A stretch of DNA of 33,715 nucleotides, taken from assembly GCA_017556765.1 (NCBI GenBank), contig JAFYME010000043.1, positions 1-33,715 on the forward strand. The letters run 5' to 3'. A program made the translations under genes and the position numbers. The notes beneath the pieces are model-generated. The model had not been told where the DNA came from and searched no databases. It was given only the letters and a program-made list of their open reading frames with translations. Source of the DNA: Bacteroidales bacterium. GTDB taxonomy: Bacteria > Bacteroidota > Bacteroidia > Bacteroidales > UBA932. Numbering within the stretch: position 1 is the stretch's first letter; each line of letters begins with the position of its first letter. Positions 1,251-26,077 of this stretch are shown one piece after another.

Positions 1251-1362
1251 CAGGTGGAACGTAAATTATTAGTTATCAGGAATTTAGTTCATTATGGGTG
1301 GGATAAATTTCCCACCCACAGCACCATATATCATTGATGATCAATCATTTATATTCCACCTG
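1251..1362. repeat. Inverted repeat at the 3' end of the RAYT-like gene
   Basis: Bases 1251-1266 and 1347-1362 are inverted copies matching at 14 of 16 positions. The inner copy overlaps the last codons and stop of the transposase gene; the 80 bases between hold the palindrome at 1295-1318. This could be one structured end of a transposable unit. Confidence 0.6.
1295..1318. repeat. Palindrome flanking the RAYT-like gene (3' side)
   Basis: TGGGTGGG / CCCACCCA arms of 8 bp around an 8-base A/T loop. A near-identical palindrome lies on the other side of the gene at 2314-2337. Such paired hairpins are what is expected of REP sequences beside their cognate Y1 transposase. Confidence 0.75.
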
Positions 1363-2265
1363 AAAATGAAGGAACTTCCCTATCTGCATCCTATTTGCTG
1401 ACGTACACGCAGATAAGCTTCCATATAGATCAAATTTCTCATCATCCGATAAGGATATTACATCCCCGGCATGCTTGAAGCCATGCTCACGGACATATCT
1501 TATCAGCTCCCGGTACTCCCTGTCGGATTTCACATATTTAACCTCATTGATTTCATATTCACTGCCTGCGTTGGAATTGATTGCCATAAGCATATTATCA
1601 TGACCACCATAGCACCCCTCCAGAAGATCATATCTGATGACAGAGTACCTCGAAATTATATAGTCGATGATCTGGTTTCTCTCTTCCTTCTCCAGACCTG
1701 ACAACATTCTTCTAAGCTGTGGGTATGAAAGGTACATGCCACGTCCAGCCTCATAGTCAATCTCCTTGATGATACGTCTGAGCTTACTGGACGCCTCTTT
1801 TCTTATGATCTTATTTGAAAACGGGTTCCTCGAATGTGCATATGCGAGAAAATTCCATCTGTAATCCTGCGCTCTGCTGCAAAGCATCTTCTCTACCGGA
1901 TTATTATAGAGATATGAAATTGCAGTGCGCAAGAGCTTTATTCCACTCTTTACAGAACTGCCGAAGCGCTCTTCAAAAAGAGGCCCTATACGATCATGAG
2001 CCGAATTGTATTCTTTGACGAAAAGCGATGTAACATGAGATATGAACCTGCTCATCGCACTTGCGGAACGAGAGGTGAACAATGAATGAACATGATCGAT
2101 CATAAGGCAAAGACCATAGACGATGATATCGTACCTTACTGCAAGAACAGAAAAAATCGTATAGTACACGATGTAATCTTCCACATCATAGAAAATATTG
2201 AAGCCGGATACGGTACGTTGGTACACATGATTAGCTTCTCCCTCCTTGAATTTCCTTTTCTCCAT
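1345..2265 (-). CDS. REP-associated-type tyrosine transposase (Y1/HUH superfamily, COG1943)
   Basis: Single-strand DNA transposase of the IS200/REP-associated group: HUH nucleases cut and join DNA at hairpins using one catalytic tyrosine. The HUH pair is seen as MIDHVHSLF near residue 59, with the preceding strand (IVYGLCLM) usual in the family. The candidate catalytic Tyr lies in AISYLYNNPVEK, which matches the family block Y-x-x-NPV. At 306 aa it is much longer than IS200 TnpA (about 150 aa) and carries an extra C-terminal half that I cannot assign, resembling the C-terminal additions of RAYT proteins. Its start is ATG after an A-rich stretch. It stands alone between pnp and a nucleotidase gene with no accessory tnpB. 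Matching palindromes at 1295-1318 and 2314-2337 flank it. Most RAYTs are single-copy domesticated genes; whether this one still mobilises its palindromes cannot be seen here. Confidence 0.85.
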   Translation of the reverse strand: MEKRKFKEGEANHVYQRTVSGFNIFYDVEDYIVYYTIFSVLAVRYDIIVYGLCLMIDHVHSLFTSRSASAMSRFISHVTSLFVKEYNSAHDRIGPLFEERFGSSVKSGIKLLRTAISYLYNNPVEKMLCSRAQDYRWNFLAYAHSRNPFSNKIIRKEASSKLRRIIKEIDYEAGRGMYLSYPQLRRMLSGLEKEERNQIIDYIISRYSVIRYDLLEGCYGGHDNMLMAINSNAGSEYEINEVKYVKSDREYRELIRYVREHGFKHAGDVISLSDDEKFDLYGSLSACTSANRMQIGKFLHFQVEYK

Positions 2266-5988: not shown

Positions 5989-6253
5989 GTCATACTGAAC
6001 ATACTCTGTCATACTGAACATACTCTGTCATCCTGAATATACTCTGTCATCCTGAACATACTCTGTCATCCTGAACATACTCTGTCATCCTGAACGAAGT
6101 GAAGGATCTTTCGGATAAAGATTCTTCGCTGACGCTCAGAATGACAACAGAGAAGCTCAGAATGACAACAGGGAAGCTCAGAATGACAACAGAGAAGCTC
6201 AGAATGACAACAGAGAAGCTCAGAATGACAATAGAGAAGCTCAGAATGACAAT
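5989..6253. repeat. Palindromic element with both arms tandemly amplified
   Basis: The centre is an imperfect hairpin at about 6084-6148 (left arm GTCATCCTGAACGAAG..., right arm ...GACGCTCAGAATGAC). To its left are five 19-bp copies of an outer-arm unit (GTCATCCTGAACATACTCT and variants, 5989-6083). To its right are five 21-bp copies of the other outer arm (AGAGAAGCTCAGAATGACAA plus C or T, 6149-6253). Left and right units are inverted relatives but differ in length and spacer, so the two sides expanded separately. Related elements occur in hutI (12966-13112) and at 26048-26077. The array fills the ftcD-hutU gap and would be transcribed if these genes are co-transcribed. Confidence 0.9.
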
Positions 6254-12806: not shown

Positions 12807-14171
12807 ATGAAAACTGTAATACACAATATCGGCACCTTGGTAGGCATACTGCCTTCAGATGTCATAAAGCTGGAAGGAGCTCAGATGAATCATGTGGAGT
12901 GCATCGAGGATGCGTATCTCGTGATTGAGGACGACATAATCACTGAGTATGGAGAAATGTCAGATTCTGTCATTCTGAAGGGTGAGTCACAGTCCAGCCA
13001 AAGGGGCAATTCACCTGTCATTCTGAACGGAACGAAGTGTAGTGAAGAATCTTTAAGTGAAAGATCCTTCGCTGACGCTCAGGATGACAAGAATGGTGCT
13101 CAGGATGGGAACATAGAGTATATCGATGCGAAGGGTGGTTTTGTAATGCCGGCTTTCTGCGACTCGCATACTCATATAGTGTATGCCGGATGTCGAGACG
13201 GTGAGTTCAGGGACAAGATTGCAGGACTTTCTTATGAGGAGATCGCAGCGCGAGGAGGCGGAATCCTGAATTCGGCTGACCTTCTGCATGAGACATCAGA
13301 GGACGAGCTGTACAGACAAGCGATGGAAAGAGTGCGTGAGATCATGGCCATGGGTACAGGAGCTGTGGAGATCAAGAGCGGATACGGTCTGACAGTCGAG
13401 GATGAGCTGAAGATGCTTAGAGTGATAAGAAGGATCAAGGAGACAGCTCCGATCACTGTAAAGGCAAATTTCCTTGGGGCACATGCAGTCGGACGAGCAT
13501 ATAGGGGCAGACAAAGCGAATATGTCGACCTCGTCTGCGAGGAGATGTTGCCAAAAGTGGCAGAAGAAGGCCTTGCAGACTTCGTTGATGTATTCTGCGA
13601 TACTGGATTCTTTACAGTAGAAGAAACGGCCAGAATCCTCGAAAAAGCGGCAAATCTGGGCATTCGTCCAAAGATTCATGCAAACGAACTGGAGGTTTCT
13701 GGTGGAGTTCAGGTCGGAGTAAAGTATAATGCACTTTCTGTTGATCATCTGGAGAAGACAACTGAAGCAGAAATCGAGGCACTAAGAGGCAGCGAAACAA
13801 TGCCTACAATGCTCCCGGGCTGTTCCTTCTTCCTCGGTATCCCATTCGGCAACGCAAAAGGTTACATAGAAGCAGGCCTACCGGTAGCACTGGCATCAGA
13901 CTACAATCCTGGCTCAAGTCCAAGCGGAAACATGCGATTTGTAATGGCTCTAGGATGTATACGCATGCGACTTACACCTGAGCAGTCTTTCAATGCATGT
14001 ACAATAAACAGTGCATACGCAATGGGAGTAAGCAAGGAACTCGGTTCGATAACAGTCGGCAAGAAAGCCAACCTGATCATCACAAAGCCGGTTCCGTCTC
14101 TCGCATTCATACCATACAGTCACCAGACACCAGTGATCGAACAGGTGATATTGAACGGAACACGTATCTGA
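12807..14171 (+). CDS. hutI: Imidazolonepropionase with an in-frame palindromic-repeat insert
   Basis: Third step of histidine degradation: hydrolyses imidazolone-5-propionate to N-formimino-L-glutamate (EC 3.5.2.7). It belongs to the amidohydrolase superfamily. Metal and substrate blocks are intact: FCDSHTHIVYAG, RGGGILNSA, EIKSGYGLTVEDELKML, KANFLGAHAVG, KIHANELEVSGG, NALSVDHLE and ALASDYNPGSSPSGNM. Residues about 54-102 (SVILKGESQ... to ...GAQDGN) are not family sequence; they are encoded by a copy of the palindromic repeat also found after ftcD. Removing these 49 residues leaves 405 aa, the usual HutI length, so the insert is a clean in-frame addition in the N-terminal beta-sandwich region, just before the HTH metal site. 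The start is the ATG at 12807; a TTG two codons upstream is less likely. It is followed by a terminator. Confidence 0.95.
   Translation: MKTVIHNIGTLVGILPSDVIKLEGAQMNHVECIEDAYLVIEDDIITEYGEMSDSVILKGESQSSQRGNSPVILNGTKCSEESLSERSFADAQDDKNGAQDGNIEYIDAKGGFVMPAFCDSHTHIVYAGCRDGEFRDKIAGLSYEEIAARGGGILNSADLLHETSEDELYRQAMERVREIMAMGTGAVEIKSGYGLTVEDELKMLRVIRRIKETAPITVKANFLGAHAVGRAYRGRQSEYVDLVCEEMLPKVAEEGLADFVDVFCDTGFFTVEETARILEKAANLGIRPKIHANELEVSGGVQVGVKYNALSVDHLEKTTEAEIEALRGSETMPTMLPGCSFFLGIPFGNAKGYIEAGLPVALASDYNPGSSPSGNMRFVMALGCIRMRLTPEQSFNACTINSAYAMGVSKELGSITVGKKANLIITKPVPSLAFIPYSHQTPVIEQVILNGTRI
12966..13112. repeat. Palindromic element inside hutI
   Basis: The core hairpin at about 13017-13088 runs from TGTCATTCTGAAC through GAAGAATCTT and AAAGATCCTTCGCTGACG to CTCAGGATGACA. 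An extra left outer arm (TGTCATTCTGAAGG, about 12968-12981) and an extra right outer arm (GCTCAGGATGG, about 13098-13108) flank it, echoing the amplified arms at 5989-6253. The total insert is 147 bases, a multiple of three. Confidence 0.85.
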
Positions 14172-14224: not shown

Positions 14225-14236
14225 ATCTCTCAATGT

Positions 14237-14420
14237 CAGCGACACACCGTTTTAAAGTAAAAAACGTGTATCGCGAACAATAATCCCACTTAAACATGGG
14301 AAATAATGCAGCGACACAGCGTTTTAGTGCGAAAAACCTGTATCGCGAACAACTATCCCACATAAACAAGCGAAATAATGCAGCGACACACTGTTTCAAG
14401 GGGAAAAAAGTGTGTCGCTG
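14237..14420. repeat. Tandem 72-bp repeat of hairpins
   Basis: Three copies of GCGACACA(C/G)... begin at 14239, 14311 and 14383, exactly 72 bases apart; the third copy is cut after its hairpin. Each copy folds: 14239-14247 with 14266-14274, 14311-14319 with 14338-14346, and 14383-14391 with 14410-14418. Between hairpins is a spacer with TCCCACTTAAACA-like sequence. It lies between the terminators of hutI and of the long lipoprotein gene. No protein use is evident although the - strand frame is open. This 328-base gap (14172-14499) holds only these repeats and the two terminators. Confidence 0.85.
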
Positions 14421-14499: not shown

Positions 14500-17400
14500 T
14501 TAGAGTGAGTACTCACTTGCATCAGCTGGCTGGAACTCGATAAGTACAGTCTTAACGTCTGTCTTACCATAGTTGAAGTTGTGAGTAAGAGTGTACTCAA
14601 CCTCAGCGTATACAGAGTGGAGAAGGATACCGTCATCAGCCTTAAGAGTGATAACGCCGTCAGCATACTCATACTTGTTAGTTGGGTAAGCGTGGTCACC
14701 GTTCTCGTCAGTAGTGTAAACTCTCTTAAGAGTTACAGTGTAGTCAGCTCCGTAAGTTACATCAGCCTTAGAGTTGTAGAAGAGACCCTTGCTTGTCTTA
14801 CCATCTACGTTGATGAGGTTACCCTCCTCCTCTGTGCTTGTAAGAGTAAGAGCAGAGAATGACTTAACTGTTGTAGGTACGCCTGGGAGACGAGTTACAA
14901 CGATGCTGTCAGCAGCGAACTCGAGTGGATCAGCTGTGTAGAGAACTACGTTCTTGCGATCGAGCTCAAATACACCGTTAACCATGAGAACTGCCTCAAC
15001 CTCGATCTCATTAAGCTGGAATGTGTTACCGTTAGTCCAGTCCTTGATTACTGACATACCCTCGTCAAGTACGAAGTACTCAACTGCCTCGTTCTCGTCC
15101 TCGATAACGTTAACTACATCTGTAGTCTCAGGTGCTGGAGCGCCCTCAGTCTTAACGATGAACTGAACAGTAAGGTTATTGTCGTTGTCAGTATCCTTGC
15201 TTACGTTGAAGTACTTGCCAAGGTCAGCCTGGTCAATAGTGTAAACACCCTTAACGATATCACCGTCAACCTCTACGCGGCCATTGTTCTCGTCAACAAC
15301 TGTTACATAGTCAGCTGTAGAGAAGATAAGACCGTTAGTAGGAACGTCGATAGTTGCATCAAGCTCGAATGCGAATGGAACCTCGAACCAGAAGTCGTTA
15401 AGACCTGTCTCATAGAGAGTGTAAAGCTGTACACCGTCCTCAGTCATTACTGACTCAGCCTTGTTGTAGTCGTAGAAGCGAACGAGACCAGTGTTGTATG
15501 CTACATTCCACTCAGTACCCTTAGCGCCACCAACCTTAACAGTGTTAACCTCGTTTACAGAAGCACCTGTGTTCTCAAGAGCTGCCTTGAATGCTGCCTT
15601 TGCTGTTGCCTCGTCAGCATATCCGAGGAACTCAACGCCAGTTGCCTGGAGAGCCTCATCGAACTCAGCATAAGCTGCGTCGAGGAAGTTAACCTCAGCT
15701 GCATAGAATGGGTTCTCACCATCAATTGTAAGAATTGCATGACCACAGTCAACAGCTACTGGAGCTGGCTGCTTGCCGAGGAGGAGAGTTGCAGTAATAG
15801 TAGCTGTTACTGACTCGTGCTCCTTAACCCAAGTGATCTTGTACTCGTTGTAGTCGTTCTCAGCATCGTAAGCAGGGAATGCATAACCATTCTCAGCAGA
15901 TGGGATGAGACGGAGAGTTACGAACTCGTCACCGATGCTAGCCTGGATGTCAACGTTAGTTGCGAGCTGACCGTTTACAGTAACCTCTCTCTTAAGAGTT
16001 GTACCAGTCTGAACGATTGAGTAGAGTGAGTATCCCTCGAAGTTCTCAGGAACTGTGTAAGCAGCGTTTCTTACGAGCTCGTTTCTGTAAAGAACAGATG
16101 CATCGTTAAGAACAACTCTGAGTGAGTCAGCAAGACCCATAGTCCAAGGAACTACAACTGCAGGAACATCGTAAGAGATGAGCTTGTTAGTAAGCTGAAT
16201 CTTAGAATCAGCAGCAACCTTGATACCATTTACATTGTAAACTACGTTGAAGTCGAACTCACGACCCTTATCCTCCTTAGTGTACTGGTCACCAAGTGTG
16301 AATGTGAAGTCAGCCTCCTTCTCATCGTAATCAGCAGTGAAAAGCCATCTGAAAGTACCTGGCTCAACCTCGATAACGTTACCCTCATTGTTCTCAGTCA
16401 TAACAACGTTACCGTTCTTTGCAGTAAGAACTCTCTCAACATTGAGGTCGTACTGTGCAACTACCTCATCCTTAACAAGGTTACCAGCTGCATCCTTGAA
16501 TGCGAGCTTGTTGTCCTTAAGGATAACAACTGTAGTATCAGCCTTGTCGTAAGGAAGGAGATGTGTCTCGTTAGGCTCGAGAGTGTACTCCTTATTGTTA
16601 GCGTCAACGATTACTGGAGTGAACTCAGCTGTCTGAGCAGCAACGAGGTTAGTGAACTCAGTAGCACGGTCGTTGTTTCCGTCATAAAGAAGGAGTGAAG
16701 TGCTGTAGATGTTTCTACCCTCGAAGAACTCTGGCTTGAAGTTCTTAGCAACAACTGAAACGAGGAGATACTCATCCTTAGCAGTTACGTCAACGATCTC
16801 GAGAGCAGCGGCAGGAGCCTCAGTCTCAGTTGAACGAACCTTAACCTCCTTAACCTCCATTGAGAGGTTCTCAGCATACTGAAGAGCGATAGTAGAAGCT
16901 ACCTTAGAAGCGTCCTCAGCGTTAACCTTATAAGTAAGAACTGAAATAGCTGGAACGTAAAGATCAGTTGAGTTCTCAGCGTTAGGATCTACGCGTACGA
17001 TAGCGAAGTCGATAGTACCCTTGTGGTCATTGTACTCAGGAACGAATACGATGCTCTGAACACGGCCCCAAACATCCTGTACGAGGTTGTTGAGCATTGT
17101 AAGAGTCTGCTGAGTTGCCTCGATCTGTGAAGCAAGGCCCTCGATGAGAGAGTTAACCTCTGCAATCTCATCAGCGTGAATGTTCATTGCTGCAGTAAGA
17201 GCCTCCTGAAGGTCAGTGATTGACTTGCCAAGAAGGATATCCTCGTCCTTAAGCTGCTCGATAACACCCTCGATACCCTCTACATCATTCTTAAGAGTCT
17301 CGATTGCAGTCTCATGGTTAGTGATAGCCATGTCGTACTGAGCGATCTTCTCCTGGAGAGTAGCCTTGAATGCCTCGTAAGCTGCGATGTGTGCCTTAAG

Positions 17401-18306
17401 AGCAGCGTCTACGTCGTCGATAAGGAAAGAAAGAGTAGATACTGTTGCAGTAAGCTTCTCAAGAGTCTGGTTGATCTGAGCTACCTCATTGTCAATCTTC
17501 TCCTCAAGAGTTGTGTAAACTGATGCAAGACTTGCTCTGAGAGTCTCGATCTCCTGATAGATCTGATCGTCAGCAGCCTTACGCTCCTCTTCCTCAAGCT
17601 TGAGAAGGTTGTCGAGGTTTGTGCAAGTCTTCTCGATCATATCGATCTTCTCCCAAAGAGCCTCATCCTCGATTTTTGATCTCTCGATCTCCTCTGCAAG
17701 GAGAGTGTTGATTGCAGATGCGAACTCCTGAACAGTCTGGATGCTAGAGTAGATCTCCTCCTCCATTGTATCGATGTAAGCGTATACTGCGTCCATCTGA
17801 GCCTCCATCTCTGCCTGATATACCTCGAAAGCAGTTGTGAGGTTCTGTACACCCATAGTGTTCTGAGCTACTGCCTCGCAAAGAGAGTTTACAGTTGCCT
17901 CGAGATCCTCGATGCGCTTAACTGCACCAGCGATAGCTGCTGAGTTTGCGTCGATGTCACCCTGAAGCTCAGCCTTTGCATCAGCAAGAGCCTTCTGGAG
18001 AGCTGCGATTGCAGCCTCTACCTCAGCCTTGTCAGCCTTAGTTGCGATAGCTGCGTTGAGCTCTGCAACTGCTGCGTCGATTGTAGTGTTGAGCTCTGTC
18101 TCGAGAGCAGCAAGCTCTGCCTTTGTAGCAAAGTTTGCGTTGAGCTCTGCCTGGAGATCAGCGATAGCCTTCTCGAAGTCGGCCTCGACAGCATCAACCC
18201 TCTCATTCACATTCTGGATGTCTGTGTCATAGTCAGTACATCCAACCACAGCAACTGCTACTCCGCAAAGAAGCAACTTGCCAAGTTTAGTGAAAAATGA
18301 TTTCAT
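14500..18306 (-). CDS. Very long coiled-coil lipoprotein, function unknown
   Basis: A 1268-aa secreted lipoprotein. The signal and lipobox are MKSFFTKLGKLLLCGVAVAVVGC, then TDYDTD, an acidic patch that fits the surface-export signals described for Bacteroidota lipoproteins. Roughly residues 30-420 are heptad-rich and nearly free of Pro (AELNANFATKAELAALE, ATKADKAEVEAAIAALQ), which predicts a very long coiled coil. The remaining ~850 residues are rich in Val, Thr, Asp and Asn and look like a string of beta-sandwich domains, but I recognise no named family with certainty. Some database entries of this shape are labelled as having a PL29 lyase N-terminal domain because of the coil; I see no catalytic evidence. 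Codon use is strongly biased to a few codons, suggesting high expression. It lies 57 bases after an ompA-like gene on the same strand with no terminator or clear promoter between, so they are probably co-transcribed. Confidence 0.85.
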   Translation of the reverse strand: MKSFFTKLGKLLLCGVAVAVVGCTDYDTDIQNVNERVDAVEADFEKAIADLQAELNANFATKAELAALETELNTTIDAAVAELNAAIATKADKAEVEAAIAALQKALADAKAELQGDIDANSAAIAGAVKRIEDLEATVNSLCEAVAQNTMGVQNLTTAFEVYQAEMEAQMDAVYAYIDTMEEEIYSSIQTVQEFASAINTLLAEEIERSKIEDEALWEKIDMIEKTCTNLDNLLKLEEEERKAADDQIYQEIETLRASLASVYTTLEEKIDNEVAQINQTLEKLTATVSTLSFLIDDVDAALKAHIAAYEAFKATLQEKIAQYDMAITNHETAIETLKNDVEGIEGVIEQLKDEDILLGKSITDLQEALTAAMNIHADEIAEVNSLIEGLASQIEATQQTLTMLNNLVQDVWGRVQSIVFVPEYNDHKGTIDFAIVRVDPNAENSTDLYVPAISVLTYKVNAEDASKVASTIALQYAENLSMEVKEVKVRSTETEAPAAALEIVDVTAKDEYLLVSVVAKNFKPEFFEGRNIYSTSLLLYDGNNDRATEFTNLVAAQTAEFTPVIVDANNKEYTLEPNETHLLPYDKADTTVVILKDNKLAFKDAAGNLVKDEVVAQYDLNVERVLTAKNGNVVMTENNEGNVIEVEPGTFRWLFTADYDEKEADFTFTLGDQYTKEDKGREFDFNVVYNVNGIKVAADSKIQLTNKLISYDVPAVVVPWTMGLADSLRVVLNDASVLYRNELVRNAAYTVPENFEGYSLYSIVQTGTTLKREVTVNGQLATNVDIQASIGDEFVTLRLIPSAENGYAFPAYDAENDYNEYKITWVKEHESVTATITATLLLGKQPAPVAVDCGHAILTIDGENPFYAAEVNFLDAAYAEFDEALQATGVEFLGYADEATAKAAFKAALENTGASVNEVNTVKVGGAKGTEWNVAYNTGLVRFYDYNKAESVMTEDGVQLYTLYETGLNDFWFEVPFAFELDATIDVPTNGLIFSTADYVTVVDENNGRVEVDGDIVKGVYTIDQADLGKYFNVSKDTDNDNNLTVQFIVKTEGAPAPETTDVVNVIEDENEAVEYFVLDEGMSVIKDWTNGNTFQLNEIEVEAVLMVNGVFELDRKNVVLYTADPLEFAADSIVVTRLPGVPTTVKSFSALTLTSTEEEGNLINVDGKTSKGLFYNSKADVTYGADYTVTLKRVYTTDENGDHAYPTNKYEYADGVITLKADDGILLHSVYAEVEYTLTHNFNYGKTDVKTVLIEFQPADASEYSL

Positions 18307-26047: not shown

Positions 26048-26077
26048 TGTCATGCTGAACGAAGTGAAGCATCTTTT
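26048..26077. repeat. Half-copy of the palindromic repeat in the symporter leader
   Basis: TGTCATGCTGAACGAAGTGA followed by AGCATCTTTT: the left arm of the element found at 6084 and in hutI, without the right arm. The unit has changed CCTGA to GCTGA and GGATC to GCATC, a paired change that preserves a small internal inverted repeat (ATGCTGA / GAAGCAT). Confidence 0.75.

What the first reader, a model, noticed from the sequence alone, without database searches (positions are those of the whole stretch)
12966..13112. Palindromic repeat inserted in frame in hutI, adding about 49 residues
HutI matches its family on both sides of residues 54-102, but this stretch is encoded by a palindromic element whose relatives lie in non-coding DNA at 5989-6253 and 26048-26077. 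The insert is 147 bases, frame-preserving and stop-free, and removing it restores the usual length of about 405 aa. This resembles the Rickettsia palindromic elements, which insert into genes and are translated. I know of no described counterpart in Bacteroidota with this sequence. It sits just before the metal-binding HTH block, so either the protein tolerates a loop there or activity is altered.
Basis: partly seen in the sequence, partly recalled or inferred. Interest (0 to 1): 0.8.

Follow-up and report, generated by a model that had tools for sequence, protein, structure and literature searches.

The report
Palindromic repeat translated inside HutI enzyme
A short repetitive hairpin sequence that normally sits between genes lies, in reading frame, inside a histidine-breakdown enzyme of a gut bacterium, and related species carry different hairpin repeats in the very same loop, which suggests that mobile DNA is repeatedly turned into protein at a few tolerant spots.

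Summary
hutI (12807-14171) carries a stop-free, in-frame insert whose core, 13016-13089, is a head-to-head pair of REP-type hairpins with worn end copies on both sides. The repeat matches at least 40 places in this incomplete genome, 7 of them in frame inside genes, murB (twice) and rsgA included. Repeat-free close relatives have HutI of 412-414 aa (454 here), and the rest of hutI is under strong purifying selection (dN/dS about 0.04), so the insert is very probably translated and tolerated.

The wider pattern is more interesting. Among 115 HutI of the genus (very likely Cryptobacteroides), this loop holds motifs of five palindromic-repeat classes in 39, needing at least 24 changes on the HutI tree. 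HutU, TruB, MurB and MiaA have reused sites too. One family there (57-nt core, arms that differ between copies yet stay complementary) is in frame inside genes in 15 of 18 fetched copies outside HutI.

It works like Rickettsia palindromic elements. In-frame REPs are known elsewhere (PMC3733652), so this is a new variant of a known kind.

The parts
12807..14171 (+). hutI, imidazolonepropionase, 454 aa with the insert
   Evidence: NCBIfam TIGR01224 hutI, 396.9 bits against cut-off 298.15, best stretch residues 101-452, after the insert; motifs DSHTH, KIHAN, VDHLE, ASDYN present
   Evidence: no such repeat in L011 and L012
13016..13089 (.). head-to-head REP dimer, core hairpin
   Evidence: inverted repeats; DNA fold z -4.14; same layout as 6083-6146
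12967..12982 (+). worn extra copy of the left REP end
   Evidence: direct repeat of 13015-13030, 94%
13098..13107 (+). extra copy of the right REP end (GCTCAGGATG)
   Evidence: direct repeat of 13077-13086
6083..6146 (.). extragenic REP dimer of the same family
   Evidence: z -4.93
5989..6095 (+). 5.6 tandem copies, period 19 nt, of the left REP end
6134..6252 (+). 5.7 tandem copies, period 21 nt, of the right REP end
26048..26076 (+). single extragenic REP with a paired change in its stem (ATGCT/AGCAT)
1345..2265 (-). Y1_Tnp (RAYT-like) protein; a candidate type of mobiliser, but flanked by a different palindrome
   Evidence: PF01797 27.5 bits against cut-off 23; no TGTCAT REP (up to 6 substitutions) in its fetched locus

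Best explanation
The insert is a REP-type palindromic repeat (a head-to-head dimer with worn end copies) that entered a variable loop of HutI, between the N-terminal strands and the first metal-binding motif, in an open frame. It is transcribed and translated as about 40 extra residues, and the enzyme still works well enough to stay under purifying selection. Repeats land in many places; in-frame, stop-free landings in tolerant loops survive, so the same few loops (HutI, HutU, TruB, MurB, MiaA) are filled again and again with repeats of different families. Shown here: repeat identity, frame, repeat-free loops in relatives, reuse of the loop, selection on the rest of the gene. Inferred: translation, tolerance in the folded protein, and movement by a Y1-type (RAYT) enzyme on single-stranded DNA.
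For: Same repeat at 40 places in the genome (53 matches merged by hand; a lower bound, since 40 of 48 first-look candidates were scored). 8 of 40 lie inside called ORFs and 4 overlap an ORF edge; one of the 8 (L237) is a false 5' extension, leaving 7 sites in 6 genes. REP hairpin: 105 of 105 cells paired on 15 distinct units, 13 cells with both sides changed, 0 of 500 shuffles reach either. Repeat-free HutI in L011 and L012. In 115 of 123 HutI parsed, motifs lie in the loop of 40 (39 without the doubtful L011): 65 hits in 7,155 nt against 32 in 137,963 nt elsewhere in the same genes. Tree: at least 24 changes for presence, 33 for family state. In 1.045 Mb of 103 loci around hut genes, 37 of 38 in-ORF motif hits fall in HutI (29) or HutU (8) (counted by eye; the script gave two of the HutI hits, L133 and L135, to an antisense ORF). 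dN/dS 0.041-0.047 against L042, L012, L124 and L131.
Against: None of 3 Y1_Tnp genes found in the genome has this REP in its fetched locus, though the genome is only 58% complete. The HutI survey depends on readable ORFs, so out-of-frame landings would be missed. Motif hits also occur outside the loop in 28 of 115 genes, 23 of those 32 hits being the loose F2 pattern. 14 loops longer than 16 aa have no assigned class. In the REP covariation test 5 of 7 pairs never vary, and two measures (pairs with a double change, number of pair types) do not exceed shuffles. The right junction shared by many REP loops could mean common descent with replacement in place and not repeated landing.
Confidence: 0.85

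Rival explanations
1. The repeats were inherited from a few old insertions and then remodelled in place (inversion, conversion by other REPs, tandem growth, partial loss), so the loop was hit rarely and edited often.
For: Many F1/F2 loops share the right junction, RATCT running into ATNGAC, CTNGAC or alike. Family-B arms are shared by some species in TruB (L302/L303; L314/L317/L319). HutIs L122 and L010 (99.4% identical after the loop) carry the B element in opposite orientation, 77 of 107 alignment columns identical once inverted. L136 (F5) still ends in an F2-like unit, and L132 looks like a shortened L133.
Against: Different repeat classes stand in the loop of close relatives (window F1, L042 B, L123 F4); L135 (F2) and L020 (F5) differ at dS about 0.19; conversion between unlike families has no clear homology to use.
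Confidence: 0.3
2. The segment is domesticated: the hairpin in mRNA or the extra loop in protein is selected for a function such as message stability, pausing or partner binding.
For: REPs elsewhere are thought to act on mRNA (abstract of PMC3733652, seen in listings); reuse of a few genes, two of them in the same pathway.
Against: Sequence, length and family differ between close species; repeat-free close relatives exist; host genes are otherwise unrelated.
Confidence: 0.1
3. hutI here is a decaying gene or the insert is an assembly error.
For: Single MAG, 58% complete.
Against: Frame kept, metal-site motifs present, dN/dS about 0.04; mid-contig; same type of insert in other assemblies.
Confidence: 0.03

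Closest known systems
Rickettsia palindromic elements (RPE; original papers not read, told from passages of PMC2229807 and PMC10969869)
   Same: Palindromic repeats inserted in frame in conserved genes and present outside genes too; one host protein, gmk, is translated and active (PMC2229807). TruB is a host of RPE-1 in R. conorii (PMC3733652) and of family B here.
   Different: Different phylum, a gut Bacteroidota; here several families occupy one loop in different species. RPE sequences were not compared here.
CGTC/TGTC-tagged REPs, including intragenic ones (PMC3733652)
   Same: TGTC tag, stem starting with AT pairs, dimers, in-frame copies within ORFs; two Xanthomonas recB genes carry REPs at about the same site.
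   Different: Stem is 5+2 pairs broken by GA/GA, loop GAA, end ATCT instead of a CCA-like tail; the parts I read report no single loop reused across dozens of species.
REPIN/BIME with RAYT transposases (partly recalled)
   Same: Head-to-head REP pairs; a Y1_Tnp protein is encoded in the window.
   Different: That gene is flanked by another palindrome (TGGGTGGGRTAAATYYCCCACCCA), not by this REP.

Membership tests
CGTC-type REP (PMC3733652) | terminal CGTC, often TGTC | tested here: met
   TGTC in 24 of 26 aligned units, CGTC in 1, TATC in 1
CGTC-type REP (PMC3733652) | 8-9 bp stem with AT residues in the first two pairs | tested here: inconclusive
   A-T and T-A first; 7 Watson-Crick pairs, split 5+2 by GA/GA
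CGTC-type REP (PMC3733652) | loop of 4-5 nt and short unpaired tail, mostly CCA | tested here: not met
   3-nt loop by the pairs tested; units end RATC(T); so filed as CGTC-like, not as a member
CGTC-type REP (PMC3733652) | copies in frame inside ORFs occur | tested here: met
   7 of 40 sites (less the L237 artefact)
Rickettsia palindromic element | palindrome of 105-146 bp inserted in frame in genes | tested here: inconclusive
   palindromic and in frame: met; size: core 74 nt, whole gain about 111-147 nt with borders unsure
Rickettsia palindromic element | belongs to RPE sequence families of Rickettsia | not tested
   no RPE sequence was fetched; the host is a Bacteroidota, so 'works like', not 'is'
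REP mobilised by RAYT | RAYT gene flanked by the same REP | tested here: inconclusive
   0 of 3 Y1_Tnp loci in a 58% complete genome

The most novel reading that the evidence does not exclude
Cryptobacteroides has a lineage-wide system of protein-coding mobile palindromes with preferred landing pads. Family B in particular lives mainly inside genes: a core of about 57 nt with 21-31-nt arms that diverge between copies while staying complementary, that can flip orientation in place, and that keeps frame in HutI, TruB, MiaA, AroE, LpxB, an M20 peptidase, TilS and a shikimate kinase. Landing may be guided by DNA sequence or structure and not only filtered by protein tolerance, with arms re-made complementary by template switching or by copying during transposition.
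Probability: 0.4. Interest if true: 0.8.

Novelty: new variant of a known kind. Interest (0 to 1): 0.62.

Why it matters
Protein-coding palindromes have been told mostly from obligate intracellular Rickettsia (and, from a title in a reference list, Wolbachia) and from scattered REP cases. A large genus of gut bacteria in which the same enzyme loops are filled with different repeats gives many natural replicates: one can ask how mobile DNA becomes protein, which loops tolerate it, how fast it turns over, and whether landing is targeted. It also suggests that translated repeats such as CHSERSEES or VIPGSDRES in predicted proteins can be real protein segments.

Tried and rejected
Chance resemblance was rejected. 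A REP-tag target idea (landing at a native GTCAT in the codons for Val-Ile) was examined: only 7 of 61 repeat-free short loops carry GTCAT there, so it is left open and not claimed. Arms of family B as inverted copies of the host gene were considered from L125 against L012 and not adopted: arms within one genome look loosely alike and some species share them, which fits arms being part of the element. Ribosome bypass or removal from the message was considered (recalled from mitochondrial byps) and disfavoured because open frames are kept. Rfam: no match for 12900-13200 at E<=1. The peptide SERSEES was found in one paper only, on hedgehogs. Nine paper searches bear on the elements; their listings show no description of them in Bacteroidales, in the held library only. 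The tenth was on HutI structures. One search printed nothing because of a faulty pattern and was redone.

Full report
What is there. The window is G000:C42 of a 1.55-Mb, 76-contig MAG, 58% complete. hutI lies at 12807-14171. The given stretch 12966-13112 is open in frame. Its core, 13016-13089, pairs TGTCATTCTGAACG... with ...CGCTCAGGATGACA and folds as a long hairpin. The layout is that of the extragenic copy at 6083-6146. There the two ends have grown outward into 19-nt and 21-nt tandem arrays. The hutI copy shows one worn extra end on each side.

Repeat family. The unit is TGTCATYCTGAACGAAGTGAAGRATC. I aligned 26 units of this genome, picked by hand among those found with at most 5 mismatches; 15 are distinct. 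The seven pairs tested are kept in 105 of 105 cells, with paired changes at two of them (13 cells, 0 of 500 shuffles reach this). Five pairs never vary, and two of the five measures do not exceed shuffles. Blast with 6083-6146 gives 53 matches in the genome at E<=1, which I merged by hand into 40 places; 40 of 48 first-look candidates were scored, so 40 is a lower bound. 8 of 40 lie inside called ORFs and 4 overlap an ORF edge. One of the 8 (L237) is, by eye, a false upstream extension of a lipoprotein ORF. The remaining seven are hutI, rsgA (L229), murB at two sites (L282), an rsmE-like ORF (L280), an FAD-oxidoreductase-like ORF (L240) and an ORF without Pfam hit (L243). RsgA and MurB are named; the rsmE and oxidoreductase names are mine by eye.

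Relatives. HutI queries match 38 of 61 relatives and 160 of 250 genomes of the genus, some of the latter weakly or in pieces. The genus name Cryptobacteroides is an inference: G205:C18 (22,401 bases) has the length of JADIMJ010000006.1, Candidatus Cryptobacteroides gallistercoris. I used 122 genus loci plus the window. 115 of 123 loops were parsed; 8 were dropped because fixed landmarks did not match: L140, L141, L163, L168, L188, L203, L208 and L213. L140 does hold a family-B insert. G025 contributes two HutI. The median loop is 13 aa; 39 of 115 are 19 aa or longer (counted; not the same 39 as below).

One loop, many repeats. Loose motif classes were F1 (this REP), F2 (GTCATnCCC...), F4 (GTCATTTCG...), F5 (...GACAGGCTCA...) and B. 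They mark 40 of 115 loops; the L011 hit is only nine bases and I count it as none, leaving 39. In the 18-row clade that holds the window, 12 loops have an assigned class, 3 are longer without class and 3 are short. The tree of the part after the loop (IQ-TREE, quick) needs at least 24 changes for presence and 33 for family state. Of its 112 inner branches 43 are open, so these counts are rough. Motif hits are about 39 times denser in the loop than in the rest of the same genes (65 in 7,155 nt against 32 in 137,963 nt). HutI pairs that differ little (L132/L133, L135/L136, L020/L135; dS 0.19-0.29) already differ in loop content, though L132 looks like a shortened L133 and L136 keeps an F2-like end.

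Other landing pads. In 65 parsed HutU loops (gene named by eye), 7 carry F1-, F2- or F4-like repeats at one position (L182, L153, L169, L171, L187, L173, L152), and L209 and L204 carry another long insert (read by eye). At the C-terminal MurB site the window's genome has this REP, L334 and L336 have other repeat-like peptides, and L335 is empty. In TruB, 26 of 34 loci were parsed and 19 of those rows carry a B-type motif (L260 and L302 are the same gene, so 18 genes). Thirty of the 34 were the best hits to a query that holds the insert and four came from the family-B search, so this share is biased upward; many other genomes match in pieces on either side of the insert.

Family B. The whole-genome search of seven genomes lists more matches than the 30 loci it gave. 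In those loci and the hut loci, 26 copies pass a core pattern. Leaving out the eight in HutI, 15 of 18 are in frame inside genes, counting L271, which one search showed to lie in an AroE-like ORF; 3 (L262, L265, L277) are outside ORFs. Host names come from one scanned gene each: TruB, LpxB, TilS, MiaA, an M20 peptidase, a shikimate kinase and AroE; the other copies were matched to these by eye. A pattern search of the window's own genome gives two copies, in TruB and MiaA. Arms are 21-31 nt in 25 of 26 copies (6 in L269). Because arms were found by maximising pairing, the fair control is that: 12 copies score 14-30, and 2-6 when the left flank is shuffled. In the 25 copies 471 of 500 inner positions pair, against 47% when arms are exchanged between copies; arms are 48% alike between copies, the first 26 nt of the core 90%. 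HutIs L122 and L010 carry it in opposite orientation. The core pattern (2 mismatches) is found in 13 of 151 genus genomes and, in the order-wide sample of 198, only in the window's own genome.

Mechanism. Shown: repeat identity, frame, repeat-free relatives, reuse of sites, purifying selection (dN/dS 0.041-0.047 against L042, L012, L124 and L131, 0.02 against L010; dS is above 1 and for L126, L129 and L011 saturated). Inferred: translation, harmless placement in the fold, movement by a Y1-type enzyme. Three Y1_Tnp genes were found; none has this REP within its fetched locus, about 1.5 kb each side. The structure of HutI could not be predicted. The best solved HutI, 2bb0, aligns from query residue 96 onward, so the loop's place in the fold is inferred.

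Known relatives. PMC3733652 (passages, and sections 6 and 15) describes REPs with GTAG or CGTC/TGTC tags, in-frame intragenic copies in several species, CGTC repeats in Bacteroidetes, and recB of two Xanthomonas hit at about the same site. PMC2229807 and PMC10969869 (passages only) summarise Rickettsia palindromic elements, with an active host protein. PMC2635572 was seen in passages only. The present case works like those. The use of single loops by several repeat families across dozens of species is what I did not find described, in the held library alone (search calls under tried and rejected).

Noticed in passing
window 1295-1318 and 2314-2337: The RAYT-like gene 1345-2265(-) is flanked on both sides by the palindrome TGGGTGGGRTAAATYYCCCACCCA, perhaps its own REP.
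   Followed up: partly
L181 and L198 (HutI loops): A further palindrome with core GACWTTGGCCCTTACGAACAGGA and arms that differ between the two sits in the HutI loop of two other species (read by eye).
   Followed up: no
L300 (G000:C3, round 16652-16882): A Y1_Tnp gene with many copies of a repeat that translates as QRHTISGRKSCIAS-like units on both sides.
   Followed up: no
L243 (G000:C73, round 44010): An ORF without Pfam hit holds a REP in frame and a C-terminal run of seven KPGMTEE-like units, which look like translated repeat ends.
   Followed up: no
G025: L010 and L039: One MAG carries two hutI genes on different contigs, both with long but different inserts in the loop; duplication or a mixed bin.
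   Followed up: no
L171: HutI loop with a His/Gly/Cys-rich run (CHGGGGCHGGGCHNHDGEE) and no assigned repeat, which might bind metal.
   Followed up: no
window 14232-14418: Tandem array of a 72-nt unit, 2.6 copies, between hutI and the large ORF 14500-18306.
   Followed up: no
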